Part shown: piece after piece, positions 37,399 through 57,480 of the stretch | How positions within the stretch are numbered: position 1 is the first letter of the stretch | How the letters are laid out: the number at the start of each line of letters is the position of its first letter | Assembly (NCBI GenBank): GCA_016490735.1 | Contig: JAEMWC010001220.1 | Span: forward strand, 145,001-209,000 | From: Pachyseris speciosa | Lineage: Eukaryota; Cnidaria; Anthozoa; Scleractinia; Pachyseridae | Reading direction: 5' to 3' | Length of the DNA stretch: 64,000 nucleotides | Translations under genes and position numbers: made by a program | Notes under the pieces: generated by a model | The model's database searches: none | What the model was told of the DNA's origin: nothing | The model's input: the letters and a program-made list of their open reading frames with translations, nothing else

Positions 37399-37645
37399 AG
37401 TAGTACTATGCCCTAGGATAGACCCAAATCCATCCAACTGGTCTCGACCAATCAGAATCGAGTATTTCAAAAAAGTGACAGCTGATGTCATGGGAATAAC
37501 TGCAGGTAAGAGGATGATTTTGTGCAGGCTCATGGACCAATCAGAAGCCAGAACGAGCTGTCAATCAAAAGGGTCACCTGACCGTATCAATCTCCCTGCG
37601 CCCGCGCATTTTTGCATCTCATTAAGAAAAGGTTCAAAATGGCCC
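37399..37645 (+). repeat. Polinton B left terminal inverted repeat
   Basis: 247 bp, about 90% identical by eye to the reverse complement of 57234-57480. It contains two CCAATCAG motifs about 80 bp apart. Confidence 0.93.
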
Positions 37646-37732
37646 TGAATAAATACTTAGCATTGGGACAATGAACACACAATGATTTTCTTTTCCAAAC
37701 TCTTTAATGACTTGTAAACTATCAATTACTGT

Positions 37733-38401
37733 TTACATTATTAATTTTAATTCATCTGGAAATAGATTGCGACGCACGCAACGGCGGGTGTTGCGTCGGG
37801 TGCTGCATCGTGGGCTGCGGCGCAGAAGTTCTCTGGGTATGGAAACCCGTAGGGCGTTCCACTCGGCCAATCGGCGACTGCAGCGCAGGGTAGGTGGACG
37901 GTAAATAAGTTCACTGGGGCGTAGCACCGGGTAGCCGGCTTGGAGGGGCGCATTGTCCACGTCTAGCGTGACGTTGGAGAAGTGTGTCTCCAAGGTAGCC
38001 AGGCACCGCGGACACCGGAAGTGGTGGTTGGTCGGCGAGCCCTGTACATGTTGGTAAAGGCAGGTGTGGTGTAAGGCCACGGAGCAGCAGGGCAACCGTT
38101 CTGTGAAGGTGTGATGGTCGCCACACAGGAAACAGGAGTCACTGGAATGATTCAACAGGTAGACAGGGCGGTGGCAGTGCGGACAGGCCCAGTTTTGCCA
38201 GGGCATGCGCTGTTGGTTCAAGGACTGTAGCCACTGGTAAATACAAGGAAGGTGCTGGCTCACGTTGCAGCAGAGGGATCTGTAGGGTATCTCTTTAGTG
38301 TCGTCATGTTCCACGGCCAGGCATATGACGCAGGGCTCGCTGTTGTTCGAGACGAATTTAGTTTGAAAGCACATCATGACGGACTGCGATTGGCACGCCA
38401 T
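37733..38401 (-). CDS. Tandem RING-like zinc protein (222 aa), Polinton B
   Basis: The open frame continues upstream, but the ATG at 38401 (MACQSQSVMM) is chosen because a TATAAAAG lies 40 bp before it at 38434-38441. Two RING-type units follow. The first is CVICLA ... CCNVSQHLPC ... WACPHC, about residues 27-85. The second is CFLCGDH ... CCSVALHHTC ... CPRC, about residues 95-145. An Arg-rich tail (LRCSRRLAEW ... RRNTRRCVRR) may bind DNA or direct nuclear import. RING proteins usually act as ubiquitin E3 ligases. It is divergently paired with another RING gene at 38603. Confidence 0.7.
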   Translation of the reverse strand: MACQSQSVMMCFQTKFVSNNSEPCVICLAVEHDDTKEIPYRSLCCNVSQHLPCIYQWLQSLNQQRMPWQNWACPHCHRPVYLLNHSSDSCFLCGDHHTFTERLPCCSVALHHTCLYQHVQGSPTNHHFRCPRCLATLETHFSNVTLDVDNAPLQAGYPVLRPSELIYRPPTLRCSRRLAEWNALRVSIPRELLRRSPRCSTRRNTRRCVRRNLFPDELKLIM

Positions 38402-38433
38402 GTTGGAAAAGTGCGCGGTGGGGTGAAGGCGAC

Positions 38434-38441
38434 CTTTTATA
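38434..38441 (-). promoter_or_regulatory. TATA box for the tandem RING gene
   Basis: TATAAAAG on the minus strand, 40 bp before ATG 38401. Confidence 0.65.
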
Positions 38442-38562
38442 GGGATCCCCGGTAACCAATGGGAGGACGGGAGGGTTGTCATGTGACCTGGAGAGAGGGA
38501 GAGGGACCCCCCATCCCCCCGGTGTATGACGTCAGCCTGCACGCTGATTGGTGGGAATGGGC

Positions 38563-38570
38563 TATATGAA
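38563..38570 (+). promoter_or_regulatory. TATA-like box for the 38603 RING gene
   Basis: TATATGAA, 40 bp before ATG 38603; the same distance as in other genes of this element. Confidence 0.5.
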
Positions 38571-38602
38571 AGTCCGGGGCGGGCGGGTGGGTCATTTTCA
38601 AC

Positions 38603-38881
38603 ATGGCGTTGTATCGGAGCAAGTCCATTGAATTTGTGCGAGATCCCTGTGTGATTTGCATGGATGTTTATTTCAGCGTGGAGAAACGGATGGCCAGCAG
38701 CGAGTCGGTGTACTTTAACAGGACGGCCGTCGTCAGACCTTGCTGCGGCTGTTACGTACACAAGGAGTGTCTGTTTATCTGGTGTTGGAAGCAGTACCAA
38801 CAGAGGGTGCACCATCAGTTGTGGGCTTGCCCCCATTGTCGGCAACCCCTCGACCCCACCCACAAGATTAACCTGTGCTGA
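38603..38881 (+). CDS. RING-like zinc protein (92 aa), Polinton B
   Basis: Intact frame MALYRSKSIEF... with CVICMD, CCGCYVHKEC and WACPHCRQPL, which is one RING unit occupying nearly the whole protein. The motif layout (CVIC ... CC..., WACPHC) is close to the first unit of the divergent neighbour, so the two are probably paralogs. A small RING protein could redirect host ubiquitination; this is inference from the family. Confidence 0.7.
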   Translation: MALYRSKSIEFVRDPCVICMDVYFSVEKRMASSESVYFNRTAVVRPCCGCYVHKECLFIWCWKQYQQRVHHQLWACPHCRQPLDPTHKINLC

Positions 38882-39051
38882 AGAAGAAGAAGACACCCCG
38901 GGGGTTTTTACCCCCACCTTAAATCTGTCAAGAGTCATGACCAACATGATGAAATCGTTTTTTGTTTTTGTTTTTTAACAGATAAACGCATGATACGGTC
39001 TTGATTAATAAAAGACTTGTCCCTAGATAATCCGATTTGAGCGCGCATCCA

Positions 39052-39517
39052 TTAAATAAAATGATAACATTCCACCTTGGGGCAGATGCGTCGGCTTATC
39101 CCGCTGATCACGTGGTGTTCGCAAGAGGCTACGGTGGTCAGGCGCGTCATGTCGTCGAACTTGGGGCAACCAAAGTCCTCTAAGTCTAAGCTGGGCAGAC
39201 CCATTTCTCTGAGTAAGTCCTGTTCCACTCGGCCGCCCTTGTAAGCTACGACGGGGCGTTGGGTGGTTGCCAGGGTCTCGTAGAGGTATTGGGTGGAAAG
39301 GCAATCCGTGCACTTGTCGCGTGACGTACCGCACCTGGCGTTCTTTGGCGGGAGTCAAGTCTTTCCACTGCACGTCGTGCCCGTAAGGATTGGACCCGCA
39401 AATTTGTCGCTGATGATCGCACCAACCCATTTCGCGGACCAGGAAACGGTCCCCTAGTCGAAAACCGTCCAAATCGACGTAGAAGCAAACTTTGTTTAGC
39501 AGGGTCTTATCGGTCAT
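39052..39517 (-). pseudogene. 'YVDLDGF' nuclease-like protein, Polinton B, frameshifted
   Basis: From ATG 39517 the frame reads VCFYVDLDGFRLGDRFLVRE ... EMGWCD. After a break near 39300 another frame carries VVAYKGGRVEQDLLREMG, LDLEDFGCPKFDD and a Cys/His end (HHVISG ... CPKVECYHF). The acidic DLDGF start and KGG..E..LL and CPKFD motifs resemble an RNase H/DnaQ-fold exonuclease-like family I have seen in mobile elements, but I cannot name it. Its start overlaps the end of the SLOG gene by 11 bp. Confidence 0.5.
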
Positions 39518-40065
39518 GTTGGCGAAAGAGGTATTTGAGTTCGTCCATGGCTCGGGGGTAGAGGTGCCGCTGTCTGGTGCCCACAATGGCGCTCTGGTTG
39601 GACAAGCTGGGTGAGATGGACGTTGAATGAAGCCAATCGTATTCGGGCGAGTATTTGTACCACCGATTGAAGCTCACGTCATAGAAGAACAGACGTCTGC
39701 CCAATCGTTGGGCTAGCGCCACGATCCAGCCGGTACCGCCTACCACGTCCGAGATCTGGTGCTGGGGTACGTCGGGCAAACACTTGGCGGAATCCGGTGT
39801 CGGCCTCTTTGACCATGTGATAATTGCGCACCAGCAGATACTGGGTGAAGGGGTTGGTCAAGGTTTTGCCTAGCTGCTGGGCCACGGCGCGTACGTGCGT
39901 CAGAGCTTCGACCACGGCCGAGGGGTCCAGCGGTTGAATGCCCCGGTGTACCCGGGGATGCAAGGGTCCGATGATCACGCGACAGGGCAAGCCGTGTTGC
40001 AGGGCTAATTGTTCAGCTAGAGTGTCGGTGCCGGTAGCGCAGCCGGTGATGATGCGAACGGACAT
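39507..40065 (-). pseudogene. SLOG/YpsA-like nucleotide-binding protein, Polinton B, one frameshift
   Basis: The N-terminal frame has IITGCATGTDTLAEQLALQH and VIIGPLHPR, a Rossmann-like glycine loop, then LVRNYHMVKEAD. After a break near 39780 the second frame has VVGGTGWIVALAQRLGRRLF and YDVSFNRWYKY. The order GxxxGTDTLAE / RN..MV..AD / GGTGW..A is that of SLOG-fold proteins, which bind nucleotide or ADP-ribose-related ligands. A TATA-like CAATAAAAAA lies about 45 bp before the ATG. The product is probably cytosolic; the ligand cannot be predicted. Confidence 0.6.
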
Positions 40066-40317
40066 GCTGCGAAAATGACTACACAGTGACTGAAAGATTC
40101 TTTTTTATTGCTATGTTGACCAATCAAAAAATAGGTACACATTAAGTGTGCATACAGTCTGAGATTTGCAAGTCCTTTTTGGGGATGAATCGGCGGTGGT
40201 TCACCCAGGCTAATTCTTTTCCTGTGGGTGACAGTAGGCGATTCACTTGTTGGTGTTGTCTGGTTAGTAAAGAAGGTGGCTTGGGATGTTCTCAGCTGGG
40301 TCTGGGGATGGACTGGG

Positions 40318-41123
40318 CTAGGTAAGCTTGCTCTTGGTAGTGGCGGCGTTCCAGTTCTTCCAGGATGCGCGGGACCATGGCAGGTCCAACCATTGGAAGA
40401 AATTGCACGTCTTTTTGGCAAAGGTTAGGAACATGCGACCCGGATTGTGCTGGGAGCGACTGGTGGTCAGTCTCATCAGTTGATTACACCAACAGTACTG
40501 GTCGGACAACGACTTGCCGTCTCCGAACACCAGGTCGGGGTGCCGTTGGTAACGAATATTTTGCAAATGCTCGGGTGCCTCTTCCTGAGAGGTGAAGATT
40601 ACGCAGTCGTTTTGGACCCGACCATAAGGCAGCAGCTTGACCCGACTGCAACGCAGGTAGGGCCAATTGCTCTTTTTGGAGGTCAGGTACTCCAAGGTGC
40701 ATATGTGAAACGAACAGGTCTCAGGAATGGTCTCTTCTTCGTAAGAAGGGAGCTCGTCCATCAATTGCTTAATTTGATCCGTGGCGTCTTGGGTTTCCTG
40801 GTTCCAGAGTTGTTCTTTCGTCAGGGGGGTGGACGGAGTGGGCGGTGGCAAGACGTCTCCGGTCTCTAGTGGTGGTGGTGTCGACAGTGTCAAAGTGGCT
40901 TGTTTTTTCTTTTTGGCCGTAACGGTGGGAGGTTTGACGGCGTACGTTCTCTTGCGAGTGCCTTGGGGCGGCAACCCGGAGGTGGCCAAATCGTTGCGAT
41001 TGGTGGCATCGTCGGGCAGACGTTGGCTCAACTGGGTGTGGCGCCCGCCTTCCCGTGGCGTTTTTGACGGGCTTTTTCTCTTTCCAGGGCCTGGTCGAAA
41101 CTGGCTGTCGTCGGTGTAGACAT
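40318..41123 (-). pseudogene. GRF-type zinc-finger protein, Polinton B, one frameshift near the start
   Basis: ATG 41123 lies 42 bp after a CATAAAAACG box and opens MSTPTTASFDQALEREKARQ. A break near 41040 leads into the 237-codon frame. That frame has a Pro/Thr-rich, Lys-rich middle (KKKKQATLTLSTPPP), LPSYEEE, a Cys-containing central part, and near the C-terminus CWCNQL ... NPGRMFLTFAKKTCNFFQW. The last part matches the zf-GRF pattern (CxC, NPGRxF, C, FFQW), with one Cys replaced. GRF fingers bind single-stranded DNA in repair enzymes. Confidence 0.6.
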
Positions 41124-41177
41124 GCTGAGAACTGATGGCGTGGGTGGAACGCGTGCGTTTTTATGCCCAGAGACTGA

Positions 41178-41333
41178 CGCCAACTGCACCAAATACGGTC
41201 AAGACGACCTGGATTGGTCATGGGCTGGTTCACGCCACTCGCACCGAACACGGTCAAGGCCACGAGGATTGGTCAGGTGGGTTCACGCCACACGCACCGA
41301 ATATGGTCAAGTCCACGCGGATTGGTCAGATGC
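41178..41333 (+). repeat. Three direct repeats of ~54 bp upstream of a gene pair
   Basis: Each copy contains GCACC-AA-ACGGTCAAG and GGATTGGTCA. The GGTCAAG words are at about 41197, 41252 and 41305, giving periods of 55 and 53 bp. GGATTGGTCA contains an inverted CCAAT. The array sits between the divergent gene at 41123 and the gene at 41394. Confidence 0.8.
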
Positions 41334-41350
41334 CACGTTCAACGAATACC

Positions 41351-41387
41351 TATAAAAGGAGAGAGGAGGCGTTCACAGCTATAAAAG
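41351..41387 (+). promoter_or_regulatory. Two TATA boxes in tandem before the 41394 gene
   Basis: TATAAAAG at 41351-41358 (43 bp before ATG) and again at 41380-41387 (14 bp before ATG). The second would start transcription downstream of the ATG, so only the first fits the spacing of the other genes. Confidence 0.6.
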
Positions 41388-41393
41388 GTGAGG

Positions 41394-41657
41394 ATGAGTT
41401 ACAAGTATTATTACCAGGATTTGAAACGCGAGGATTACGCCTCGGACGACGAGTTCTTGTTGGCGCGGGTAAGGAAAGGGTTGGAAGCCTGTTTCACTTT
41501 CGAGCAGTGTCAGGGGCATTGGTTTCAAGATTTGGCCGACGCTTTAGGTTGCTCGGAAGCGGGACCGGTGTATCAAGAACCGACCAAGTATGTCAGACCG
41601 ATTCTCCAGCAGAGCTGTGTCCTGGCAGCCATGAAGAAGGCGGAGAGCGCGAGTTGA
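41394..41657 (+). CDS. Hypothetical protein (87 aa), Polinton B
   Basis: Intact frame from ATG 41394: MSYKYYYQDLKREDYASDDE ... CFTFEQCQGHWFQDLADALG. Mixed charged and aromatic, with no recognised domain. Preceded by the repeats and TATA box above and followed only 5 bp later by the next gene. Confidence 0.6.
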   Translation: MSYKYYYQDLKREDYASDDEFLLARVRKGLEACFTFEQCQGHWFQDLADALGCSEAGPVYQEPTKYVRPILQQSCVLAAMKKAESAS

Positions 41658-41662
41658 ATTTG

Positions 41663-42046
41663 ATGGACGTGGTATCGGCCTTGCATCGCGTCAAACAAGA
41701 GCGCATTGCATTGGAGAAAGAGGAGAAAGAGAAAGAGCGCGGAGAACGCCGAGTGTGGCAACGGCGGTGCGAACGCTTGTTGAATCAAGTGTTGTGCGAG
41801 GAATGTCGGGAGCTGATGCGCGACGCCTACAGCTATGGCACGCACCAGGACAAATTGTATTGGCAACCCGATGGCTGTGCAATTTGCCAAAGGTACCAGG
41901 CGTGCATGTTGCAGCCGGAGGAGTTGGCCGACTCGGATTACGAGTCGGACGACATGGCCATCTCGTCGGACGAAGAGGAATCCATGTACTCGGACGTGGA
42001 GGAGTCCAAGGACTCTTATCAGGAACCATTGTTATCTGAAAAGTGA
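41663..42046 (+). CDS. Coiled-coil zinc-binding protein (127 aa), Polinton B
   Basis: ATG 41663 opens MDVVSALHRVKQERIALEKE with a Lys/Glu-rich coiled coil. CEECRELM and CAICQRYQAC follow (two C-x2-C pairs, probably one zinc site), then an Asp/Glu/Ser-rich tail. No TATA lies between it and the preceding gene, so translation from a shared transcript is likely. The coil plus CxxC pair is shared in outline with the gene at 52163. Confidence 0.6.
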   Translation: MDVVSALHRVKQERIALEKEEKEKERGERRVWQRRCERLLNQVLCEECRELMRDAYSYGTHQDKLYWQPDGCAICQRYQACMLQPEELADSDYESDDMAISSDEEESMYSDVEESKDSYQEPLLSEK

Positions 42047-42081
42047 GTCATTGAGAAGGTGTGTGTAGTTGTGTTTGCGCC

Positions 42082-43175
42082 ATGTCCGAGCGCAGCGTCA
42101 AAAAACAAAAAAAGAAGACCAATGCGGTCTTGGCAGCCGAATACGAATCCCCTTCCGTCGTGGGAAGTCTGGGCGGCGTGCGTCGGTTTGCCGAGGCCAA
42201 GAAGATTTCGTTGCGCCTTGCCCGAGATGTGGTGGCGGGGGTTAGTAGTTACACCCTGCACAGGCCGCGACGGGTTCGATATCCCACCCTGCCCGTGTTG
42301 GTGTTTGGCCGCGATCAACAGTGGGTGGCCGATTTGATAGAGTTGCAAAACTTGGCCAGGGTCAACAAGAGCCATCGTTATCTGTTGGCCGTGGTTCACG
42401 TGCTGTCCAAGCTCGCCTGGGTGGAACCGGTCAAGACCAAGACGGGACCAGTGGTCAGCCGCGCCTTGAGACTATTTTGAGACGCGCCCAGGGACGTCGA
42501 CCCCAGCGCTTGCAAATGGATGCGGGCAAAGAGTTTTACAACCGGAGTTTTCAGTACTTGTTGAAGAATCGAGACATTGCTCACTTTTCCACCAGCGGGG
42601 ATACCAAGGCCTCGGTGGCCGAACGGTTCAACCGCACCTTCAAAGATCGATTGTACCGCTACTTCACAGCCCAAGGTTCGTACAAGTACTTGGATGCCTT
42701 GCAGGAGTTGGTCAAGGGCTACGATGCCTCCAAACATCGCAGCATCGGCATGGTGCCCCGGGACGTCACGACGGCCAACGAGGCGGCGGTGTGGGAACGC
42801 CTGTATGGGGATCGTCTGAGGACCAAGTCTGGTCGGCGGACCCAGGCACCGGCCTTGAAGGTGGGGACGCGTGTGCGTTTGAACAAGAAACATCGCGTGT
42901 TTCAAAAGAACTACCTTCCGGGTTGGACGGAGGAGGTGTTTGTGGTGCGTCGGGTTGTGCCGGGCGTGGTACCCAGTTATCGGCTGCAGGAATGGGACGG
43001 TAGGCCGGTGGAGGGTACGTTTTACCGGCAGGACCTGCAACGCGTGACCGTGACCGACGAGGCCTTGTTCCGAGTGGAGAAGATTCTGCAGCGCAAGGGT
43101 ACACGTGTCAAAGTCCGGTGGTTGGGGTGGCCGGCCAAAGACGACTGTTGGATACAAAAGAGTGACTTGGTGTAG
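42082..43175 (+). pseudogene. INT: Retroviral-type integrase with C-terminal chromodomain, Polinton B, one frameshift
   Basis: MSERSVKKQKKKTN starts at 42082. The first frame has an N-terminal zinc-free helical part and first catalytic Asp in WVADLIEL (residue 84). A break near 42470 leads to the second frame with second Asp in QMDAGKEF and Glu in KASVAERFNRT. Then come an SH3-like region and a chromodomain (about the last 45 codons: VEKILQRKG ... VRWLGWP). Chromodomains on integrases can steer insertion to particular chromatin marks. Only one break is seen. Confidence 0.88.
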
Positions 43176-43179
43176 GTCG

Positions 43180-43220: not shown

Positions 43221-44234
43221 ATGGCTGAGTTCTACGTCGCATTACCCAGTTACAGGAGCCCGGAATTTAGTCGGAACACGCGCGCCTCGTTCAGCGTGCG
43301 GTTGCCCAATCGTTTGGAATTCGCGGAGGATGGCTGGGAAGTGGCCTTGAGTGCCCTTTCGTTGGCCGACACCAGCGTGGATTTGTCGCCGTTGGTGCAG
43401 AAACCCGAGGCGCGATTGGTCATGTCGTATTTCAAAAAGACCGATGCCCTGGGGAGTAATTCGACCGAGTACGTAGACGTGAAGATGGAAGAAATCAAAG
43501 AGATGAACGTAGAGAGACGTTTGGAAGGGTGTGTGGAATTTGTCAGTGCCTTGGTCGATAGATTGAGGTACAACGAGGACTTGAAGCACTTGGATGAGGG
43601 GGACGTTATGAAAGAACGCCTGAAATACCAGTGGACCGCGGAGCGAGGTCGTCCCGAACTGTTGATCATCACCAAGCCCGGTCTCTCGTTCGGTGTCGAC
43701 CAGACGCTAGGGGAGAAAATGGGGTGGTTGAAGAAGAACAAGGTGGGCAACATCATCATGGGTCCCAATGCTTTGGCCACGTTGCGCGAAGAAGACGACG
43801 GCACTTGGAAGAGGGAGCGCGACAAGGTCTCCAATTCGGATGCTTTGTTCAACACCACCGAGACCGGCGAAAATCGCGTGTACACGTTCAGCAGTGCCTA
43901 CAACTGGCGTTTGGTCAATTTGGACCAAGCTTTTCGCAATGTGATGGGCGAACCCACTCGTACCTTGCACGTGTACTCAAACGTGGGCGGCAGTACCATC
44001 GTGGGCGACAAAAAGACCGACCTGTTGCGGGAAGTGACCTACCGACGCACGGGGCGCGGCACGGTGTACTACGAACCCACGCACAAACAATACCATCCGG
44101 TGCGCCAACGCACCATCGAAATCATAGAAGTCAACGTGGCCGAGACCAATGAGGAATTGGTGCAGTTTCCGGATGATGGACGGGCGCAGACTTACGTGAC
44201 CTTGCACTTTCGATTTAAGAAAAAAGGAGTATAA
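43221..44234 (+). CDS. Minor-capsid (penton)-like protein 1, Polinton B
   Basis: Intact 337-residue frame, starting MAEFYVALPSYRSPEF. The start pattern 'FYVxLPSxxS' is typical of a Polinton/adintovirus protein I associate with the minor capsid or penton. The C-terminus has VYSNVGGSTIVGDKKTDLLR and FRFKKKGV. It shares motifs and domain order along its whole length with the following gene (44269), and more distantly the third. If it is the penton it would cap the vertices of an icosahedral particle; the family name is from memory. Confidence 0.65.
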   Translation: MAEFYVALPSYRSPEFSRNTRASFSVRLPNRLEFAEDGWEVALSALSLADTSVDLSPLVQKPEARLVMSYFKKTDALGSNSTEYVDVKMEEIKEMNVERRLEGCVEFVSALVDRLRYNEDLKHLDEGDVMKERLKYQWTAERGRPELLIITKPGLSFGVDQTLGEKMGWLKKNKVGNIIMGPNALATLREEDDGTWKRERDKVSNSDALFNTTETGENRVYTFSSAYNWRLVNLDQAFRNVMGEPTRTLHVYSNVGGSTIVGDKKTDLLREVTYRRTGRGTVYYEPTHKQYHPVRQRTIEIIEVNVAETNEELVQFPDDGRAQTYVTLHFRFKKKGV

Positions 44235-44237: not shown

Positions 44238-44268
44238 GAGTCGTGTGATCTGTCCATCGAAAGTGACT

Positions 44269-45294
44269 ATGAAGGATTACTACGTGATCTTACCCAGTCA
44301 CCGCATGCCCGAGTTCCCCAACAACAACCCCTCGTTGTTCAAGGTGCGATTGCCGCATCTGTTGAACTTTCCCGCCAAGGGTTGGCACGTGTCCCTGAGC
44401 AGCATTACGCTACCTTGCCCCCAACTGAATTTTGACGCCTTGAAGCTGAACGTGACCAATCACGCGCCCATGTTGGCCTCGGTGCCCACGTGTTTGGCCA
44501 ATGGACGGACTCTCGACAGGTCCATCGAAGTCAGGCTGACCGATCAAAAGGCGGGGCACGATCGAGTCAAGTTTCGCAATGGCGTGGACTATGTCGAGAC
44601 TCTATTGGGTCTCTGGGAGTCCAAGTTCACGCAGACACTGAAACAGAATTACCAGGTCACCGGTTGGATCAAGTTCACTTGGCAAAATGACGAATTGACG
44701 ATGGACGGTATGCCAGGCACGGGCATAGACTTCGACTGGCGTTGGGGCGAGCTCATGGATTGGATCAAAAGCGTCAAAGGCAGCGGAGGACAGCCGGACA
44801 TGTTCGAGGTGGGACCCCAAGCCATTCCCACGGTCAGAGAGATCAAGGTCAAAGAGGCCGACCCAGTGTTGAAGCTGACCAATGATCGGTACATGGGTGG
44901 CGACGAGTTCGTGGCCCTGGAAACCGAACGAAACGGACAGAAGATGATCACGTTTTCGTCCAAAGTCAAGTGGCGGTTTATCAGCATCAATGAAATGTTC
45001 GAATGCGTGGCAGGTCCTCGATCGCGCACCATGTTGGTCTATTACAATGCGGGGGACAGCGTCATCGTGGGTATCCGAAAAGTGGATTTGTTGCAAGAGG
45101 TGCGATACTTTAGTGGTGGATCGTCCTCGTTTTTCGAATCGAAGCACGAACGGTTTCATCCCGTGCATCAACGCACCTTGGAAGTCATCGAAGTGGGCGT
45201 GACGGAAATCAATGGCCAACACATTAACTTTCCCAATCAGTTTCTCAATCCGATAACATTGGTCACCTTGCATTTCAAGAAAAAGGCTGCATAA
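44269..45294 (+). CDS. Minor-capsid (penton)-like protein 2, Polinton B
   Basis: Intact 341-residue frame starting MKDYYVILPSHRMPEF, paralogous to the preceding gene: same start pattern, central IDFDWRWGELMDW, MLVYYNAGDSVIVGIRKVDLL near the C-terminus, and HFKKKA at the end. It begins just 35 bp after the first gene stops. Two retained paralogs imply that the particle may use more than one vertex or fibre-base type. Confidence 0.65.
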   Translation: MKDYYVILPSHRMPEFPNNNPSLFKVRLPHLLNFPAKGWHVSLSSITLPCPQLNFDALKLNVTNHAPMLASVPTCLANGRTLDRSIEVRLTDQKAGHDRVKFRNGVDYVETLLGLWESKFTQTLKQNYQVTGWIKFTWQNDELTMDGMPGTGIDFDWRWGELMDWIKSVKGSGGQPDMFEVGPQAIPTVREIKVKEADPVLKLTNDRYMGGDEFVALETERNGQKMITFSSKVKWRFISINEMFECVAGPRSRTMLVYYNAGDSVIVGIRKVDLLQEVRYFSGGSSSFFESKHERFHPVHQRTLEVIEVGVTEINGQHINFPNQFLNPITLVTLHFKKKAA

Positions 45295-45328: not shown

Positions 45329-46344
45329 ATGGAGGATTACTACGTGACGTTACCCAGTTACCGCACTTCCGAGTTCCCCAACAACACCCCCTCGTCGTTC
45401 AAGGTGCGATTGCCACATCTGTTGGACTTTCCCCCCGATCGCTAACACGTGGCCTTGACCAGCATCACGTTGCCCCGCTCCCAACTCAATCTGAAACCCT
45501 TGGAGTTGGGCGTCACCGATCACGTGGCCATGGCCACCACGATACCCTATCGGTTGGCCAGTGATGGAAGCACGGACATCAAGTTCACCGAAGTGCGCAT
45601 GACCGAGCAGAGGGTAGGTCACGATATGACGCAGTTTGCCAGCGGCGTGGATTACGTCAAGAATTTCCTGGGTCTCATGGAGACCAAGCTCACGCAGTTG
45701 CTCAAACGAAATGACCAGATCCTCAAATGGATCAAGTTCAGTTGGAAAGGAGAGGACGAATTGGTGGTGGATGCCATGCCGGACACGGGGATAGACTTTT
45801 ATTTGCATTGGTGCGAGCTCATAGGTTGGGTCAAACGAGTCAAGTAAGAGGTTCGACCCGATAGCTTTGAAGTGGGACCACAAGCCATTCTCGTGTCCCG
45901 AGAACGGATGATGGCACGTTAAAGCTGACCAGAGACAGATATGTGAGTGGCGATGAATTGGTGGCCCTGGAAACCTGTCGGAACAGACAGCAAGTGATTG
46001 CATTTTCCACCAAAGTCAAGTGGCGGTTTATCAACATCAATGCCATGTTCGAACGGGTGGTGGGCCCTCGGGCGCGCACCCTGTTGATCTACTCCAACGC
46101 CGGGGACAGCGTCATGCTCGGTGGTAGGAAAGTGGATTTGCTGCGGGACGTCAGGTACGACCTGAAGGGCCAATCGTCGTCGTTTTTCGATTTGCAGCAC
46201 GAACGGTTTCATCGCGTGCGTCAACGCACCTTGGAAGTCATCGAAGTGGAAGTGACGGAACTCACTGGCGAACAAGTGAACTTTCCCTCGAGGTATCCCG
46301 ACCAACATACGTTGGTCACCTTGCATTTCAAGCGCAAGGTATAA
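45329..46344 (+). pseudogene. Minor-capsid-like paralog 3, Polinton B, inactivated
   Basis: Starts MEDYYVTLPSYRTSEF, closest to gene 2. An in-frame TAA near 45443 replaces a Trp codon found in gene 2. A second stop (TAA 45845-45847) and a small frame change near 45850-45940 separate the last third, which ends HFKRKV at 46344. The stop-carrying copy is preceded by an otherwise normal TATA box. It is a dead duplicate. Confidence 0.8.
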
Positions 46345-46347
46345 AAC
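46340..46347 (+). promoter_or_regulatory. TATA box before the 46382 gene
   Basis: TATAAAAC at 42 bp before ATG 46382, overlapping the end of the inactive paralog. Confidence 0.7.
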
Positions 46348-46381
46348 CCGTGGGCAATCGCCCAGGTCCGTCAAAGACAAC

Positions 46382-46866
46382 ATGAAGGGAGGTAGTCTGA
46401 CGCGTTATGCTCCGCCCGGCATGGACGGTGGTGCTTTGACGCGCTACTTCCCGCCCAAGATGAACGGCGACGGTCTGCGAGACACGTTGTTGAAGTTTGG
46501 ACGTCCGGCGGTGGCCGAAGGTTGCAGACCTTGGCCAAACGCGTCAACACCCAAGGTACGGCACCAGCCGCCCGCCCCCGAGCCAGGACGCGACAACCCG
46601 CCGCCGGGACCGTGGCACCCGTGGCCGTGACCCCCGTGGCTGCTGCTGCACCCATGGCCATGGCGCCCGTGGTGGCTGCGTGCATGGCCATGGCCTCCCC
46701 GGCATCTCGCGTGGCCACGGGCAGACGGCGAGTGCAAGCGGCTCCGGTAGGTGTACCCTTGGCCACGGCACCCATGGCGGCCAGTGTGCCCATGCAAGTG
46801 CCCATGGCCGCGGCGCCCGTAGCCGCCTCGCCGGTACCCATGGTGGCCGTGCCAGCAGCTCCCTGA
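46382..46866 (+). pseudogene. Ala/Pro/Arg-rich virion-core-like protein, Polinton B, one frameshift
   Basis: The first frame starts MKGGSLTRYAPPGMDGG, a Gly/Pro-rich start with repeated LTRY(A/F)PP. A break near 46520 leads to a frame with LAKRVNTQ, a basic stretch and a long Ala/Val/Pro/Met-rich tail ending AVPAAP. Its composition resembles DNA-condensing core proteins, with no motif to prove it. It lies between minor and major capsid genes. Confidence 0.5.
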
Positions 46867-46920
46867 CGTCGCAAGAGAACGAGAGTGTCGTCGATGGCCG
46901 GCGGCGCTCTGGGTGGCAAG

Positions 46921-46928
46921 TATAAAAG
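46921..46928 (+). promoter_or_regulatory. TATA box before a 32-codon frame
   Basis: TATAAAAG at 44 bp before ATG 46965. Confidence 0.6.
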
Positions 46929-46964
46929 GAAACCCATGAGGAAGGACATTTTCAATATGATACC

Positions 46965-47063
46965 ATGATTTGGGCCAAGAGATCGATTCCGCGCTTCAGC
47001 CGGGCCTTGAAAGGCTTCGGCGCCGGCGGTCAAGTGGGTGGATTCTTGGGCCCCATCGTGTGA
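46965..47063 (+). CDS. Putative 32-aa basic peptide, Polinton B
   Basis: ATG-to-TGA frame MIWAKRSIPRFSRALKG, then GFGAGGQVGGFLGPIV: a basic amphipathic start and a Gly-rich end. It has its own TATA at the usual distance and lies directly upstream of the capsid gene. It is short, so coding is not proven. The basic start is similar in spirit to the N-terminal amphipathic peptides of adenoviral internal proteins; that comparison is only suggestive. Confidence 0.4.
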   Translation: MIWAKRSIPRFSRALKGFGAGGQVGGFLGPIV

Positions 47064-47094
47064 ACGCCCTTGGGGTTGACGTTCAAGAAGCAGA

Positions 47095-47102
47095 GTATAA
47101 AA
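47095..47102 (+). promoter_or_regulatory. TATA box before the major capsid gene
   Basis: TATAAAAC at 55 bp before ATG 47150. Confidence 0.6.
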
Positions 47103-47149
47103 CGCTGGGGATCGAGGCGCCAAGCACACAGACGCAGAAGACGAGGAAG

Positions 47150-48541
47150 ATGAGCGCCTCACTGAAAGTGTTCACGTTGCCGGCCTCCGACGTGTCCATC
47201 CAGGGCTATCGGATGAACACCTACGAACCGGTGTCTTCGGGCATCACGCCCATGGAATTCAAGATCGGGGTCCTGTATCTGTCCGTGGATCTGTCTCGCA
47301 GTTACATCAAACTTCGAATCAAGTTGGAGACCGGAGCTACCAACTCGGGGATTTGGGCTGATGGACAAGCCAGTTTACATTCCACCAACAGGTCTGGCGA
47401 CGATTACAGCAAGTACATGTACCCGTCAACAATTTCGGTCACAGTATCATTCGTCAAGCCAACCTGCGTTTCAACGGCACTTTGCTGAGCCCCCAAACGG
47501 ACGCCTATGCTTTCGAAGTCTACTTGGAGACGCTGCTGAATTACAGGCTAGCCGAAGGAGAAACCTTGTTGGCTCCCCAGGGTTGGGTCAATTGGTTCAA
47601 CGTGAGGCCAGAATTAGAATCCACAGGTGCTGACGATGATCGACCTAAGACAGCAACATCAGGCAACTTCGACAGTGGACAAGACAACAAGCTCAAGCAA
47701 TTGGGAGCCAAGTTCGTGAAAGCCCAAGAAGTGGATTTGATCATAAGACCTCATCTGGAAGCCTTCTACACGGGCCGCATCCTGGTGCCGGGCATAGAAA
47801 TGATGTTGCAGTTGTACTTCAATTTCCCGGACTTCTTTCTGTTCGATACCAAAGCGACCGGCAAGAAATATGTCACGCTGAAGCCCGAGAGCATCGATCC
47901 CAAATTTTACGTGTGTCGACTGGCCTTGAACCCCACCGTGTACACCAACTTGGAACTCAAACGAAAGCAAACCAAGATCGTGGCTTATCCCACCGTACGC
48001 ACGGACGTGCGCACCTTTACCTTCCATGGTAAGACCACGCGCTTCGAAGAAAGAGACATCTTCCAGAATCGGGTACCCGATCGCATGGTGGTGGGCTTGG
48101 TGTTGAGCGAAGCCTACAACGGGACCCTCAATTACTACCCCTTTGCCTTCCAAAAGTTCGGAGTCACTCGCATCAGACAGATTGTGCGAGGCGAAGAATA
48201 TCCCTACAAAACCCTGGAACTCAACCAGAGTGATAACCTGAAAGATTGGGCCGGGTACTTTCGGTTCCTGCAAGCCACCGGGCCTATGCTCAGATTGCAT
48301 GGTCAAGCCTGGATATTGGGGACACGGAAATTACTGCACGCTGTTTGCTTGGAACAATGTGCCCAGGGGCAATGCAGACATGGCCCTGATGAATCCCCGC
48401 CAAGCCGGCAATGTCAAATTGGAAATCACCTTTGGAGCAGCTCCCGACAAGAACATCACGGTTGTGGTTTGGGGTGAATTCGAAAACATCATCGAAATCG
48501 ATGACAACGGAGCCGTGCAGTATAACATTCACGATGTGTGA
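47150..48541 (+). pseudogene. MCP: Major capsid protein (hexon-like double jelly-roll), Polinton B, two frameshifts
   Basis: The N-terminal frame starts MSASLKVFTLPASDVSIQGY. A break near 47390 leads to the main frame with NLRFNGTLLSPQTDAYAFEV, YLETLLNYRLAEGETLL, PQGWVNWFN and further strand-rich sequence. A second break near 48300 leads to the C-terminus (LFAWNNVPRGNADMALMNPR, KLEITFGAAPDKNITVVVW, ENIIEIDDNGAVQY). These phrases are the hallmarks of Polinton/adintovirus hexon proteins. Total length of about 460 residues fits. The protease follows 21 bp downstream. Confidence 0.88.
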
Positions 48542-48561
48542 GAAGCACGTTCAGTCTGGCC

Positions 48562-49125
48562 ATGGAACTGGTAGCGCTCAGCGATCGCGTGTTGAGAGGC
48601 TTGGCCACTTCGGATGCGCTGTTGAAACGCGTGTTTGTAGGCGTCTTTCCCGAGAACCGGCTGCCACCTCAACCCACCAAGACTTGCCGCGCGGCCTACA
48701 TTGTCAACACGGACCCCGAAGGCGAACCTGGCAAACACTGGTTGGCCCTGTGGACCGAAGGACCCATCTGCGAAGTCTTTGAGAGTTACAGCCTTCCACT
48801 GGACACTTACGGCGTGCATCACCTGTTGGCTTGGATTCGCAAGCATTGGAAACACGCTAGACGCAGCGATCGCCCCCTGCAAGCCATGAACAGTCGGGCC
48901 TGCGGTCATCACGCCTTGTTGTACTTGAAAGACAAAGTGCGCGGTCGCATGTTGGAGAACTTTTTGCAAGACTTTAATCAACGTAGTTTTGTCAAAAACG
49001 ACCACCAGGTCGGACAGCGTCTGGGCACGCTGATTGGGGAACAACTCCCTTCCGACGAGGTGGATGGACCGTCGTCTCAATGTTGTATCACTAAACAATG
49101 CACATTAAAAGCCATGAAAATGTAA
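48562..49125 (+). CDS. PRO: Adenain-type cysteine protease (187 aa), Polinton B
   Basis: Intact frame from ATG 48562. Catalytic His59 lies in GKHWLALW, the acidic residue Glu74 in VFESY, oxyanion Gln107 in PLQAMN, and nucleophile Cys114 in SRACGHHALLYL. That order, H...(D/E)...Q...C, is the adenovirus maturation protease (C5/ULP-like) layout. The enzyme would process capsid and core precursors during particle maturation. Most relatives have Asp at the acidic position; here it is Glu. The gene lies immediately after the hexon gene. Confidence 0.85.
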   Translation: MELVALSDRVLRGLATSDALLKRVFVGVFPENRLPPQPTKTCRAAYIVNTDPEGEPGKHWLALWTEGPICEVFESYSLPLDTYGVHHLLAWIRKHWKHARRSDRPLQAMNSRACGHHALLYLKDKVRGRMLENFLQDFNQRSFVKNDHQVGQRLGTLIGEQLPSDEVDGPSSQCCITKQCTLKAMKM

Positions 49126-50390: not shown

Positions 50391-50423
50391 AAACCAGTTT
50401 CGTACCGCCCACGCGCGACAATC

Positions 50424-51053
50424 ATGTTTCGCGCACCGTGCAGCATCTTGGTGGCCGGTCCATCGAGTTCTGGCAAGACTGTCTTCACCAAACGACTGAT
50501 TGCCGCCCGGGACACGCTGTTCGAACCGCCGCCCAAGAAAGTGGTGTATTGCTATGACTTCTGGCAACCCAGGTACGATGACATGAAAGGGGTGACCTTT
50601 CACAAAGACCTGCCCAGCCTGGTAGATTTGTCCAAGTATTTCACGTTCCAAGGTGGTTTGTTGGTGTTGGACGATTTGCAGGACGAAGGCTGTCGCGACA
50701 AGAGCATCTTGGATTTATTCACCAAACATTCGCACCATCGCAAGATTTCGGTCATCAACATTCTGTAGGATATCTTTCCGCCCGGTCCCTACGCCAAGAC
50801 CATTTCGCACAATGCGCATTACATCGTGGCTTTCAAGAACCCTCGCGACGTGACGGGCATGCGAGCCTTGGTCTCCCAAGCCTTTCCAGACAACGTCCGC
50901 GAAGTCTTAAAATTGTTCCGGTGAGAGACCAGTCGACCCTACGGGTATTTAATGTTGGCCCTGCCCCCCGCCTCCGATGATTCTCAGCGTCTCTTCTCCA
51001 ACATCTTACCCGACGAAGGCTTGACCCGCGTATTCGTGCCCGAGGAATCATGA
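50424..51053 (+). pseudogene. Genome-packaging ATPase, Polinton B, two in-frame stops
   Basis: From ATG 50424: Walker A GPSSSGKT (residues 12-19) and Walker B LLVLDDL (about residues 79-85). An in-frame TAG at 50766-50768 and TGA at 50922-50924 interrupt it, but the reading frame is otherwise kept to the natural end TGA 51051-51053. The parts after the stops match the family C-terminus (KNPRD, RPYGYLM). Total of about 209 codons fits. It would drive DNA into the capsid; this copy cannot make the full protein unless the stops are suppressed. Confidence 0.82.
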
Positions 51054-51829: not shown

Positions 51830-51830
51830 C

Positions 51831-52135: not shown

Positions 52136-52162
52136 GGATTGTTGTTGCGTTCGCAAGTCGTC

Positions 52163-52405: not shown

Positions 52406-52451
52406 ACATAGCCACCAGTGCTTTTCAAACGCGTTTCCTGGTCAAAACCTG

Positions 52452-53009: not shown

Positions 53010-53374
53010 AAGGCCGGAAAGGAGCCGGCTCAGCCAGCGTCTGCGTCGACGCCGACGGAGCAGGCGCGGCCGACTCTTGGACATTCAACATTCGCTGTAC
53101 AAGACGGGTATTGAATTTCACTTGCCCGGCTACCATAACTTGGGGCCGGGGACGCGACTCAAGCGGCGCCTAGGGCAGCAGGACTCGGGGTCAATCGTTT
53201 GGACGCCTTAGCCAAACAGCACGACGTGGATTACGACTGCGACAAGACGTTGAGGACAAGTGGGAAGCCGACAAGAAAATGATCAAGGCCATCAAAGCCC
53301 TACCGGGGACCCATACTTGGCCAGAGGCCATCGTCAAGAAAATACTGCAAGCCAAAGTGTGTTTAAAATTGTAA
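52990..53374 (+). pseudogene. Viral phospholipase-A2-like protein, Polinton B, two frameshifts
   Basis: A basic N-terminus (SKTSRKRPERSRLSQRLRRR) is followed by LPGYHNLGPGT, a calcium-loop-like motif. After a break near 53190, AKQHDVDY carries the His-Asp pair of parvovirus VP1-type PLA2. Another break near 53250 precedes a helical end (KMIKAIKAL ... KILQAKVCL). In parvoviruses this domain opens the endosomal membrane during entry. The order LGPG ... NRLD ... HD is the basis for the call. This copy is disrupted. Confidence 0.65.
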
Positions 53375-53438
53375 TGTTTATTTTCACATTCATGGTGCAT
53401 TAGAAAAGTCATTTCATTGACAAGACAGTGTCTGTGGT

Positions 53439-55480
53439 TTATGCTTCCTCCTCCACCATCTCGTAGCCGTAAGGGAAGGTCCGAGGTGTGACGGGATCCA
53501 ACACGCGCTTGGAGTAAACCAGGCGGTAGTCCTTGGTTTGGGGTTGGGTGTACAGGGCATAGGCTTTTGCATCCCACACGATGTGATGGGACTTTGTGAT
53601 GCGCGTGGTGCGCGGTGCCGCCAGGGGATGCTCCAATTCGTCCAAGGTGTTTTGGCGCAACACCTGGTAGTTCAACTACGCCGTGCCCTCGCTGTTCAAC
53701 GTTAAGCCCCGCACTTTGCAAACGGTGTGGTCCCCGCGTGTCCGGTACCCGTAATTCTTGGAACCCCCGAGCAAAATTCCACGATGGGGTCGTCGGCCTC
53801 CAGCTCGCTCTAAAATCGCCCAGATAATCCCCAGCGGCGGGTCGGGTTGGTCGGGACGGTGCAGGAAAATCACCGAATCCGTGTCAAAGTACAACACGCG
53901 TTCCCCCAGCAGCTCCAGCGCCTCGTACAAGCGCAAGCGAGCCCAACAAATGGTGAAACAGTCGATGAAGATGTTGAGATTGGGCGACAGGCTTTCGGCG
54001 TTCATATCCTTCTTGAATTGCACCTCCACGCGTTCTTCGGTCAAGGGACTGACGTAGCGAATGTCGTTCTGGTCGCTGTCCAAAAAGCTGTGAAAGGGTT
54101 GGGGGTCCACAAACTCGCGCACCTGGGTCTTGTCCTCGCGTTGTCCGAATTTTCCCCACATGCTGTTGAGCATCATCTTGGCCAGCGCCCGCAGCCCAGG
54201 GTTCTTCTGGATGCGATCGTAGTCCAGGCGAATACCCTCCCGCTGGTAGTAAGCGTCGATGTGAGCTCGCTTCTAGGCTTCTATCAGGCAACCGGGCGGC
54301 CAACCGCTGGCTTCTTCCTTCATCTTGAGCCAGGTGTTGACGTAATCCTCTAACAACCCCAACCGCGTCTCGGCAAAGTGCCACACCTCATGAATGCTCA
54401 GGATAGAGTAGCCCATGGCTTCGGCTTTTTCCAATTCCGGCGTGCACCAGATCCCCACCAGAGCGCGGTTGGCGTACGGGTGTTGGCACTGGCACACCTT
54501 GTGGAACAGGGGGCGGTCCACGTTACTCTCCACGCAGCTGTGGCAGGGGGGGAACGTTAATTTGTCGTGGGTGCGATGGGGCAACAAGGGGTGGAACAAC
54601 CTCTCGGGTGGCAACACCGTGCACTTGACCAAACCGAAGTAGTCCGAAATGTCCGTCGTGTCGGGTTGGTAAATGATCTGCGGATGTCCCACCGGGTACC
54701 GGCCCGTCTTGTTGACGAAGGGGTACAGACTAGTGTAATCGAAGTAACGAATCTCTTCCCCCTGGGTTGGGTCGGCGGCGCAATACAGTTGCACGGCGTT
54801 GGTGCGGCCGCCAAAGAAAGCCTCCCGCGGGTTCAAGGGCTCCGGCAACTCCAGCTCTTGCACAAAGGCCCGCACGTCCGGGTCCTCCATCTTCAAGCGG
54901 TTCCACTCGCACTCCCACATCTCCACCACCCGATAGCCACGCTCGCGCAAGAACTGCATCTTGCGTTCGGTGACCATCCGTGCGTCGTCCATGGAACGAC
55001 CCAAGAAGCGGCGGTGGTCCTCGGTGCGCTGGGGAAAACAAGTGCGACAACTGTGCCAGAAACAACCGTGAAACTCGTAGGCCACGTGACCTTCGGCCTG
55101 GTAGCCATCCAAACTGTACCACGAACCGGGCATCCAGTGTTCGCCCACATTGTGCGCGTGTTCCAAGTGGTTGCGCCACAAGGGGTGATAGTTGTCCGCA
55201 TGGTCGGGGTAACCCATAGACATGACATCGTCATCTTGCATTTCCTGTTCCATCAGGGCATTCCACTCATCGTTACGCAAACGACGCTCGTGCCACAGCA
55301 CCATGCATGGGCCCCAGGGAATGATTGGTCTTTAGACGCCACCCCTGCAAGGGTTCGCTGGCAATAGTGTCGGGCTCCATGTGGTTCATGCGCAAGTCCC
55401 GGTTGCAAGCCGAAGCGATGGTGATCTGATCGAATATCGTTTCAGGTATACATTGACCCTCTGATACGCCTGGCCAGCCT
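53439..55480 (-). pseudogene. POLB: Protein-primed family B DNA polymerase, Polinton B, two TAG stops, N-terminus damaged
   Basis: A single minus-strand frame covers 55304 to 53439 apart from TAG at 54273-54275 and 53676-53678. Motif A is FDYTSLYPFVN (~54735), then LFHPLLPHR and CHSC, motif B KMMLNSMWGKFGQ (~54165) and motif C YFDTDSVI (~53885), all catalytic Asp residues present. Upstream, ITIASACNRDLR and TIASEPLQGW are found in a different frame (~55330-55430), so a break lies near 55310. The region that should hold the 3'-5' exonuclease N-terminus is not recognised upstream of 55480. It differs clearly from the PolB of Polinton A. Confidence 0.85.
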
Positions 55481-55545
55481 CAATTCCTCCTACCAACTGA
55501 CGATCCAACGCATACGCCACCTGGCCTGTGACCGCTGGTTAACAT

Positions 55546-55553
55546 TATAAAAC
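55546..55553 (+). promoter_or_regulatory. TATA box facing the right-end Cys-rich region
   Basis: TATAAAAC on the plus strand about 105 bp before ATG 55651. An acceptor-like TTTTCTTGACAG lies just before that ATG. Confidence 0.45.
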
Positions 55554-55650
55554 AAACACAACATCTTCCTTGAAATTCGTACCAGTTATCTCATGCACGT
55601 GGATTATTAAAACGCTGTGCTTGGTTTTCTTGACAGAGATTGATCGATCC

Positions 55651-55812
55651 ATGGCTGAATGCCACGCCTCCCCGAAAGACTCTTCGTTTGCCCCCACCTC
55701 CGCAGCTGCGGTCAATGGATCCACGTGTTCCGCCGCCACATCATTTACCACATCCTACAATCCCTTTGATTGTCTGTTCTCTGTCTCTCGCAACTGTTTA
55801 TTGTGCCCATGA
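55651..55812 (+). CDS. Ser/Thr/Ala-rich small protein with C-terminal CLLCP
   Basis: MAECHASPKDSSFAPTSAAA ... ending SRNCLLCP and a stop. The same ending type (YRSCTLCP, stop) recurs at about 55985. It lies just after an acceptor-like sequence and could be an exon or a complete small protein. Confidence 0.4.
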   Translation: MAECHASPKDSSFAPTSAAAVNGSTCSAATSFTTSYNPFDCLFSVSRNCLLCP

Positions 55813-55859
55813 TCCTTTGGCCCAGCGTACGCCCCGGCAGAGTTAACCCACCCAAAGTC

Positions 55860-57172
55860 ATGATCCTCATCTGCCCTGTTTTCAGTGAATGCGGTCAACA
55901 ACTACGGGCCCTCAATAGACTTGCTTTGAGTCATTTGTGCCAATGAAAGTGTCTGTTCTATCGTAGCTGTACATTGTGCCCATGATCTGTCTACACCATG
56001 GTCCAATCGTCATCTCATCCAGAGTCAGGATGCTCGTCTGCCCTTACTTTGGTCAATGCCGTCAACACCTGTGCGCCCTCAGTTCCCTGGCTTTGCGTCA
56101 CGTACGCCATTGCGATACCAACTATCGCGGCCGAGATGTAACTTTGCGTCGCTATTTTTGCAGATCCTAACCAGCACCCACCTCTGCTCGGACATTGATC
56201 CCAGTACTGGGCGCATGCGGGTCAGACCTGTCTCCATCTTCCCACCCACTTCTTTTACCAAGAGATTGACTTTCATTCCCCTGCTTTCCTTTCCAGTGCA
56301 TGAAAGACATGCTGAACCTGTTCCCCAATCATCCCGACGCCGGGATCAAGTTTTGCCAGCACCTCCAACGCTATTGGATCCAACAACGTTTCGTGCGCTG
56401 TGAACATTGCCAACACTTCACTTTGTTAAACGCCTGTCAAGAATGCCACTTTCAAGACCACTCCTATCGTTATCCTTTCAGTTGCAAATATTGTAAAGAT
56501 TAGCCTTTTGATAGTTTCATTAAAAACCGTTTATTTTTATTGCAGTGTTTTGTGGATACTTTCTGTTCTGTGGATTTCTCCACCGCTCCAGATCGCCTGT
56601 TGTCACGCGAGATGTTCCCCAATCGTTGCCGTCGCCGCCAATCCTGTCGCCGCTGCCGACACCTGCTCCCCTTCTACATCTACTATTACGACTTCTACTA
56701 CTGAACCGTGAATTTTCTTTGCAGTGTTTTGTGGATTTTGGTGGCTTTTCTACCGCTCCCTTGGACCCTATTCACTGTACCCACGGGAGACCCTCCAGAT
56801 CCGACGAGTTCCGTCACCGCCGCTCCTGTCGCCGCTGCCGAGACTTACTCCCCTCCTACTGTCCCGCCTGTGAACCCTTTGCCTGCAGCATTTGCAAACC
56901 AAAGTTATCCACTCTCTCACAAACCACTGTAACTGTTTTCTTTCGTAAACCTTAGTTGCAAACAACACTGACTGCCTGCTCTCCCTTGCAGGTGCTGTTT
57001 GCATGTGCGGTCAACAAGTACAAGTCACGACAATTGTTTCTCTGCCCTTTCTACAATGACTGTGGAGAACAAACACGAAGCTGTGCGCCATACACCATAC
57101 GCCGTCATCCGCCGAATTTTGAACGTATTTTCAACGTTGTAAATAGGACCATTATAAGATACCATTAAACAG
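55860..57172 (+). other. Cluster of repeated Cys-rich modules with splice-acceptor-like boundaries
   Basis: Three related short modules carry CP-aromatic-x-x-C-x-x-Q: ICPVFSECGQQLRALNRLAL (~55872), VCPYFGQCRQHLCALSSLAL (~56038) and LCPFYNDCGEQT (~57042). Two tandem copies of another module begin TGCAG/TGTTTTGTGGAT (~56544 and ~56724) and share SCRRCR-LLP. Many modules follow pyrimidine-rich ...CAG sequences (TTTTCAG, TTTTCCAG, TTTGCAG, ATTGCAG). No family is recognised. The region may be a multi-exon, alternatively spliced gene or decayed duplicates. Confidence 0.45.
56300..56503 (+). CDS. Small zinc-finger-like protein (67 aa), Polinton B right end
   Basis: ATG-to-TAG frame MKDMLNLFPNHPDAG ... 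VRCEHCQHFTLLNACQECHF ... FSCKYCKD: three C-x2-C pairs plus His residues, enough for one or two zinc sites. It lies directly after TTTCCTTTTCCAG, so it may be the last exon of a spliced gene. No family recognised. Confidence 0.5.
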   Translation: MKDMLNLFPNHPDAGIKFCQHLQRYWIQQRFVRCEHCQHFTLLNACQECHFQDHSYRYPFSCKYCKD

Positions 57173-57233
57173 TGTGTCAATAACCATCACGTGTCCGTTC
57201 ATTGACTCTCGTCCCTCTCCAAGTAGAAATCTA

Positions 57234-57480
57234 GGTCCATTTTGAACCATTTTTTAATGAGATGCAAAAATACGCGGGCGCAGGGAGATTGATACGGTCA
57301 CGTGACCCTTTTGATTGACAGCTCGTTCTGGCTTCTGATTGGTCCATGAGCCTGCAAACAATCATCCTCTTACCTGCGGTTATTCCAATGACATCAGCTG
57401 TCACTTTTTTGAAATACTCGATTCTGATTGGTCGAGACCAGTTTGATGGACTTGGGTCTATCCTAGCGCATAGTACTACT
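57234..57480 (-). repeat. Polinton B right terminal inverted repeat
   Basis: Reverse complement of the left TIR with scattered substitutions; ends ...CATAGTACTACT followed by CTGGTT. Confidence 0.93.

What the first reader, a model, noticed from the sequence alone, without database searches (positions are those of the whole stretch)
37399..57480. A 20-kb adintovirus-like Polinton with perfect 6-bp target duplication
TIR ends, AG start, CTGGTT duplication and a near-complete virus-like gene set (PolB, integrase, hexon, protease, ATPase, core, PLA2) are all visible. It also carries an unusual accessory arm. This is the best candidate for a little-described system in the window.
Basis: partly seen in the sequence, partly recalled or inferred. 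Interest (0 to 1): 0.85.

Follow-up and report, generated by a model that had tools for sequence, protein, structure and literature searches.

The report
Decayed multi-penton Polinton, polymerase half deleted
This is a dead, integrated virus-like transposon (a Polinton), probably in a coral-like animal, that carries three side-by-side genes for the protein that caps virus-shell corners, where its relatives in the same genome usually carry two.

The parts
37393..37398 (.). target-site duplication CTGGTT (left)
   Evidence: single site in empty paralogues
37399..37658 (+). left terminal inverted repeat, starts AGTAGT
37736..38401 (-). RING-type zinc-finger ORF
   Evidence: FANCL_C E 0.015, below cut-off; FANCL RING 4ccg E 0.0015 with the longer ORF; homologous to the + strand RING ORF, E 7e-11 for the single comparison
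38570..38878 (+). second RING-type ORF, opposite strand
   Evidence: zf-RING_2 E 0.082, below cut-off
39026..39673 (-). unassigned ORF, coding may be split over two frames
   Evidence: no Pfam match
39510..40104 (-). weak SLOG/DprA-like ORF, seemingly split over two frames
   Evidence: Pfam YAcAr E 0.016, DNA_processg_A E 0.035; PHROG DprA-like E 0.077; NCBIfam dprA E 0.051; Pfam and NCBIfam below cut-offs; PDB nothing relevant
40321..41160 (-). GRF zinc-finger protein, open frame
   Evidence: PF06839 E 1e-6, 29.1 bits against cut-off 25.9
42055..43172 (+). rve integrase with chromodomain-like C-terminal end, in two frames (broken)
   Evidence: rve E 0.21 and 0.0038, Chromo E 0.015, all below cut-offs; PDB 'Integrase' 7z0h_W E 0.013
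43221..44231 (+). penton gene A (copy 1), open frame
   Evidence: AlphaFold model pLDDT 75.9; mavirus penton and adenovirus penton base matches
44269..45291 (+). penton gene B1 (copy 2), open frame
   Evidence: 32-35% identical to A, same family
45329..46341 (+). penton gene B2 (copy 3), broken frame
   Evidence: 53% and 66% identical to B1 in its two open pieces; 91% DNA identity to C534_B2
46382..46950 (+). small protein with adenain-type cleavage motifs, frames shift
   Evidence: 3 motifs in the 116-aa frame 46280-46627, reached by 1 of 2000 shuffles, 26 ORFs tested; a fourth at 46894 in another frame; partly shared by three relatives
46961..48538 (+). probable hexon (major capsid), at least three frames (broken)
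   Evidence: position and length only; no family or PDB match
48538..49125 (+). adenain-like cysteine protease, open frame
   Evidence: Peptidase_C5 E 0.029, below cut-off; 152 matches in the host genome
49953..50195 (+). small very basic ORF, core-protein candidate
   Evidence: no convincing family match
50391..50768 (+). packaging ATPase, truncated frame
   Evidence: Walker A at 50457; Pox_A32 E 2.2e-4
53439..55437 (-). PolB polymerase part with an endonuclease-like stretch; two internal in-frame stops plus a frame change
   Evidence: PF03175 E 7.5e-14 and 5.2e-7; motifs A, B, C at 54740, 54179, 53885; phrog_13076 endonuclease E 1.5e-7
55437..55443 (.). junction of a 4.3-4.9-kb internal deletion
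   Evidence: comparison with 6 relatives' right arms
55443..57220 (.). right arm without recognised genes, imperfect repeats spaced 173-182 bp
57221..57480 (-). right terminal inverted repeat
57481..57486 (.). target-site duplication CTGGTT (right)

Best explanation
A degraded, internally deleted copy of a high-copy Polinton/Maverick family, probably of a cnidarian. Shown: insertion with 6-bp duplication into a copy of a host repeat; TIRs; penton fold, PolB, GRF finger; weaker matches for integrase, protease and ATPase; absence of the PolB exonuclease/N-terminal half that relatives keep; broken frames. Inferred: the intact family replicates its linear DNA by protein-primed PolB, integrates by the rve integrase and packages DNA in icosahedral particles, a small capsid or core protein being cut by the adenain-like protease. 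Inferred with less confidence: the family builds its vertices from two diverged penton paralogues (A and B), and this copy's lineage holds a third (B2), so vertices may be mixed or of more than one type. This copy itself can no longer move on its own.
Against: Hexon has no independent support. TM-scores to mavirus penton are modest (0.39-0.46) and rmsd large (7-9.5 A), so the match is at the level of fold. dN/dS near 0.5 is only mildly below 1 and includes time after insertion. The faster middle domain of the penton is faster in orthologues too (A vs P0003: 45% against 65% and 77% in the cores; A vs B: 26% against 33% and 47%), so it is no special sign of specialisation. L037, a relative, has only one of the adenain-type motifs. 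C32 keeps the exonuclease yet measures only 21.1 kb, so length alone does not show the deletion. Nothing shows that particles exist.
Confidence: 0.88

Rival explanations
1. The penton trio is a neutral tandem amplification with no role; extra copies simply have not decayed yet.
For: Copy 3 is broken here; the second B of C1112 falls in the B1 clade, so that trio arose separately; only 3 clear trios among 70 listed A loci.
Against: A and B are only 32-35% identical yet occur together at 60 of 70 listed loci; dN/dS below 1 in 36 of 36 pairs; B2-type genes are the only listed B gene at C531, C428, C404 and C1036.
Confidence: 0.3
2. A bona fide adintovirus provirus rather than a transposon-like Polinton.
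For: Penton, probable hexon, adenain-like protease, adenain-type sites, integrase with chromodomain-like end; BFVD hits include adintovirus proteins; an adintovirus-like polinton of the coral Stylophora is in print (PMC11071308, passages).
Against: The PolB N-terminal part that would hold the OTU domain is deleted here, and Pfam finds no OTU in the homologous part of L001 or L026; similarity to adintovirus hexons not tested.
Confidence: 0.4
3. A non-autonomous, exonuclease-less Polinton subfamily mobilised in trans, not a one-off deletion after insertion.
For: TIRs, TSD and both ends are intact despite the deletion.
Against: 6 of 7 right arms inspected have the exonuclease and the seventh showed no PolB at all; other copies with the same junction were not searched for.
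Confidence: 0.15

Closest known systems
Vertebrate Mavericks (PMC8097293; abstract start, passages and section 7 seen)
   Same: TIR, perfect 6-bp TSD, (AGT)2//(ACT)2 ends, size 12.7-24.6 kb, order integrase - minor capsid - PW - major capsid - protease, accessory regions flanking the core, most copies degraded
   Different: One minor capsid gene listed there, three penton genes here; the ATPase here lies on the strand of the capsid genes, not with PolB; host lineage differs
Adintoviruses (PMC11071296, passages; the founding paper PMC8502044 is not held)
   Same: Penton, hexon-type gene, adenain-type protease, rve integrase with chromodomain-like end; duplicate pentons are reported there for two adintovirus genomes
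   Different: PolB N-terminal part missing in this copy; membership tests inconclusive; A and B paralogues recur family-wide, with a trio in some copies
Stylophora coral polinton / adintovirus StCAV (PMC11071308, passages)
   Same: Named PolB relatives of this copy are from Acropora muricata (52%) and Stylophora pistillata (47%)
Mavirus penton (6g41/6g42) and adenovirus penton base
   Same: Predicted fold of the A gene, and by homology B1 and B2
   Different: About 6-11% sequence identity; a single penton gene in those viruses (recalled)

Membership tests
Polinton/Maverick | terminal inverted repeats | tested here: met
   260 nt, 93%; 248 nt, 95%
Polinton/Maverick | 6-bp target-site duplication | tested here: met
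   CTGGTT both sides; one site (TTGGTT) in 5 of 5 opened empty paralogues
Polinton/Maverick | conserved end motif (AGT)2 or (AG)3 | tested here: met
   AGTAGT at both ends; motif from PMC8097293 section 7
Polinton/Maverick | rve integrase | tested here: met
   two frames match complementary parts of the rve profile, E 0.21 and 0.0038, each below cut-off because the gene is split
Polinton/Maverick | protein-primed family B polymerase | tested here: met
   PF03175 E 7.5e-14; exonuclease/N-terminal half absent in this copy, present in 6 of 7 relatives' right arms; priming itself not testable
Polinton/Maverick | cysteine protease and A32-type ATPase | tested here: inconclusive
   Peptidase_C5 14.5 of 21.3 bits, Pox_A32 21.2 of 22.8 bits, both below cut-off
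Polinton/Maverick | minor capsid (penton) protein | tested here: met
   fold match to mavirus and adenovirus pentons
Polinton/Maverick | double jelly-roll major capsid | tested here: inconclusive
Adintovirus | PolB with N-terminal OTU-like domain | tested here: inconclusive
   region deleted here; 6 of 7 relatives' right arms have a part homologous to L001 residues 1-345, but Pfam finds no OTU in the L001 and L026 pieces scanned
Adintovirus | hexon recognisable by BLASTP against adintovirus hexons | not testable with these tools
   no adintovirus hexon set held; a close-relative scan of viral contigs found none
Adintovirus | integrase with C-terminal chromodomain | tested here: inconclusive
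   Chromo E 0.015, 15.6 of 25.1 bits
   no HDxC motif in coding DNA, no Pfam PLA2 match among the ORFs scanned; frames are broken

The most novel reading that the evidence does not exclude
This Polinton family encodes a two-component (in some copies three-component) vertex system: penton A plus a deeply diverged penton B, with B1 and B2 as interchangeable cassettes at the same slot, so that one capsid carries either mixed pentamers or two kinds of vertices (for example entry versus portal, or alternative receptors).
Probability: 0.35. Interest if true: 0.72.

Novelty: new variant of a known kind. Interest (0 to 1): 0.5.

Why it matters
Polintons are discussed as kin or ancestors of adenoviruses and other DNA viruses, yet their particles have not been observed (PMC8097293 abstract, listing). 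A family that keeps two diverged penton genes across dozens of copies gives a concrete, testable question about how such particles would be built (one vertex type or two). It also supplies many insertions that can be dated, a base-exact empty-site proof of the insertion, and a worked example of how a copy dies: loss of the polymerase half and frame decay.

Tried and rejected
PLA2: the motif scan found only one HDxC, at 57026 in non-coding DNA; rejected. Unknown or fibre-like function for the trio: rejected after the second structure model (the first, with 6 rows, was useless, pLDDT 35). Specialisation signal in the penton middle domain: rejected, orthologues show the same pattern. IMG/VR relatives: five scans gave none. 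The GTDB scan gave three MAG contigs; L001 looks like host DNA in a bacterial bin (inference) and served as a long PolB yardstick. Hexon by sequence: failed. VIA and Foldseek were run on the penton model only; a family missing from those lists is not excluded.

Counts and drops. One search listed 128 matches (119 of 427 candidates scored), 128 (118 of 324): lower bounds. Six loci came out with two or more B entries; in C415, C212 and C183+ these may be fragments of one gene, so I count three clear trios (window, C534, C1112 minus). Of 60 A+B loci 53 have B starting within 1.4 kb of the A match, four at 1.8-2.2 kb, three at 3-6 kb. Ten A loci had no listed B. In one search L030 showed neither exonuclease nor polymerase. 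In one search 5 of 39 other repeat copies were opened.

Left unassigned: ORFs at 39.0-39.7, 41.1-42.0, 49.5 and 51.7-52.9 kb.
Full report
Observation. The element spans 37399-57480 (20,082 bp). Both ends read AGTAGTACTATG inward, the inverted repeats match over 260 nt at 93% without gaps and over 248 nt at 95% in BLAST, and CTGGTT stands directly outside both ends. GC is 54% inside and 37-38% outside. (AGT)2 ends are the commonest end type of vertebrate Mavericks (PMC8097293, section 7), which also have 6-bp TSDs (passage).

Insertion proof. The left flank is a copy of a high-copy host repeat: 40 matches are listed in the 984-Mb host genome. I joined the two host flanks around one CTGGTT and aligned them to five other copies of the repeat; in 5 of 5 the alignment runs through the junction with one copy of the site, which reads TTGGTT in all five.

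Genes. Integrase in two frames (rve, Chromo-like end; each piece below cut-off). PolB on the minus strand, polymerase motifs A, B and C present. ATPase with Walker A, Pox_A32 just under cut-off. Adenain-like protease in an open frame, weak match. GRF zinc finger in an open frame, E 1e-6. Two homologous RING-type ORFs on opposite strands in the left arm. A weak SLOG/DprA-like ORF hit by three libraries, at E 0.016-0.077. No PLA2. The hexon is inferred from position (between penton and protease) and length only.

Family-wide pattern. Penton A (copy 1) and penton B (copies 2, 3) separate with 100/100 support, each grouping with database proteins from other, unnamed contigs, which may be of the same species. 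In the host genome 70 listed loci carry A; 60 of them have B within 7 kb on the same strand, 53 starting within 1.4 kb of the A match. Most of these show one B; the window, C534 and C1112 clearly have two. In the DNA tree of 16 B genes two clades are supported at 100/100. Window copy 3 is sister to the second B of C534 (91% identity) in one clade, together with the only listed B genes of C531, C428, C404 and C1036. Window copy 2 is in the other clade, with C534's first B and C1618 (86/98); both B genes of C1112 fall there too, so that trio arose separately. So B1 and B2 are old alternatives at the same slot, and the lineage of the window and C534 has both, by recombination or by loss elsewhere. 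dN/dS among the nine open B genes of these 16 is 0.38-0.71 in 36 of 36 pairs. Counts are lower bounds because the tool scores only the best candidates.

Adenain substrate. The frame after the trio (46280-46627, 116 aa) carries three (M/I/L)xGG-x or (M/I/L)xGx-G motifs; 1 of 2000 shuffles reaches that, 26 ORFs having been tested, and the motifs are part of a repeat and so not independent. A fourth lies at 46894 in another frame. Of three relatives' stretches read, L038 has the same three plus the fourth, L039 two of the three, L037 the fourth only. The motif rule is recalled. With penton, this protein, probable hexon and protease in that order, the block looks like an adenovirus late block (order recalled).

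Deletion. Queries holding the PolB exonuclease match the other Polinton of the window (26.0-26.5 kb, E 6.7e-5 to 0.002) but nothing significant in the right arm of this element (best E 0.41). In 6 of 7 fetched right arms of relatives the exonuclease and an N-terminal part are present, and the window's right arm (55443-57480) aligns in long pieces at 75-93% to DNA that begins 4.3-4.9 kb beyond the exonuclease/polymerase boundary. PolB homology in the window stops at 55437. So one internal deletion took the PolB N-terminal half and further DNA. C1618, bounded by two TIR matches, measures 24.8 kb, in line with 20.1 kb plus the deletion; C32 measures 21.1 kb with the exonuclease present, so element length varies for other reasons too.

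State and age. Broken here: integrase, penton copy 3, hexon-like gene, ATPase, PolB and probably the SLOG-like ORF. Open: penton copies 1 and 2, protease, GRF ORF, RING ORFs. TIR divergence is about 4.8% (12 of 248), so the insertion is not recent if the TIRs were identical at insertion.

Host. Unnamed. PolB relatives that bear names are from the corals Acropora muricata (52%) and Stylophora pistillata (47%) among the 120 listed, and L001 comes from a MAG named Plut, so a cnidarian host is likely but not shown.

Novelty. Polintons, adintoviruses and even duplicate adintovirus pentons are known (PMC11071296, passages: two genomes). I found no report of a Polinton family with two diverged pentons as the rule or with three; searches: listings of an open-licence library only, and the founding adintovirus paper was not held.

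Noticed in passing
window 13385-28613: A second, different Polinton with 94% TIRs (13385-13756 / 28237-28613), weak capsid-type and A32-type matches, rve integrase and PolB pieces, PolB and others in several frames; no matching TSD of 4-8 bp at its BLAST-defined ends.
   Followed up: partly
G000, many contigs: A second protease family at 45-46% identity to this one: at least 20 places with 203-aa frames, mostly without stops and many with the same score, which suggests a younger related element family (inference).
   Followed up: no
G000:C185:899380-900384 and G000:C207:624228-625232: Two full-length penton-like genes only 28-32% identical to both A and B, a possible third penton type.
   Followed up: no
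window 54273-55331 (-): The PolB ORF holds an endonuclease-like stretch before the polymerase match (phrog_13076, E 1.5e-7); not tested on the relatives.
   Followed up: no
window 1-684: Tandem array of a 250-bp unit containing a tRNA-like gene (two Rfam tRNA hits).
   Followed up: no
window 36899-37398 and 57487 to about 57710: The element sits inside a high-copy host repeat (39 further matches at 84-91% listed for the left flank; in four of five opened copies the alignment runs on about 220 bases into the right flank).
   Followed up: yes
window 34157-34270: Interstitial telomere-like CCTAAC array.
   Followed up: no
L001 (MAG contig JAAXHI010000374.1): A contig binned as a Poribacteria genome encodes a Polinton-type PolB; looks like host DNA in the bin.
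   Followed up: partly
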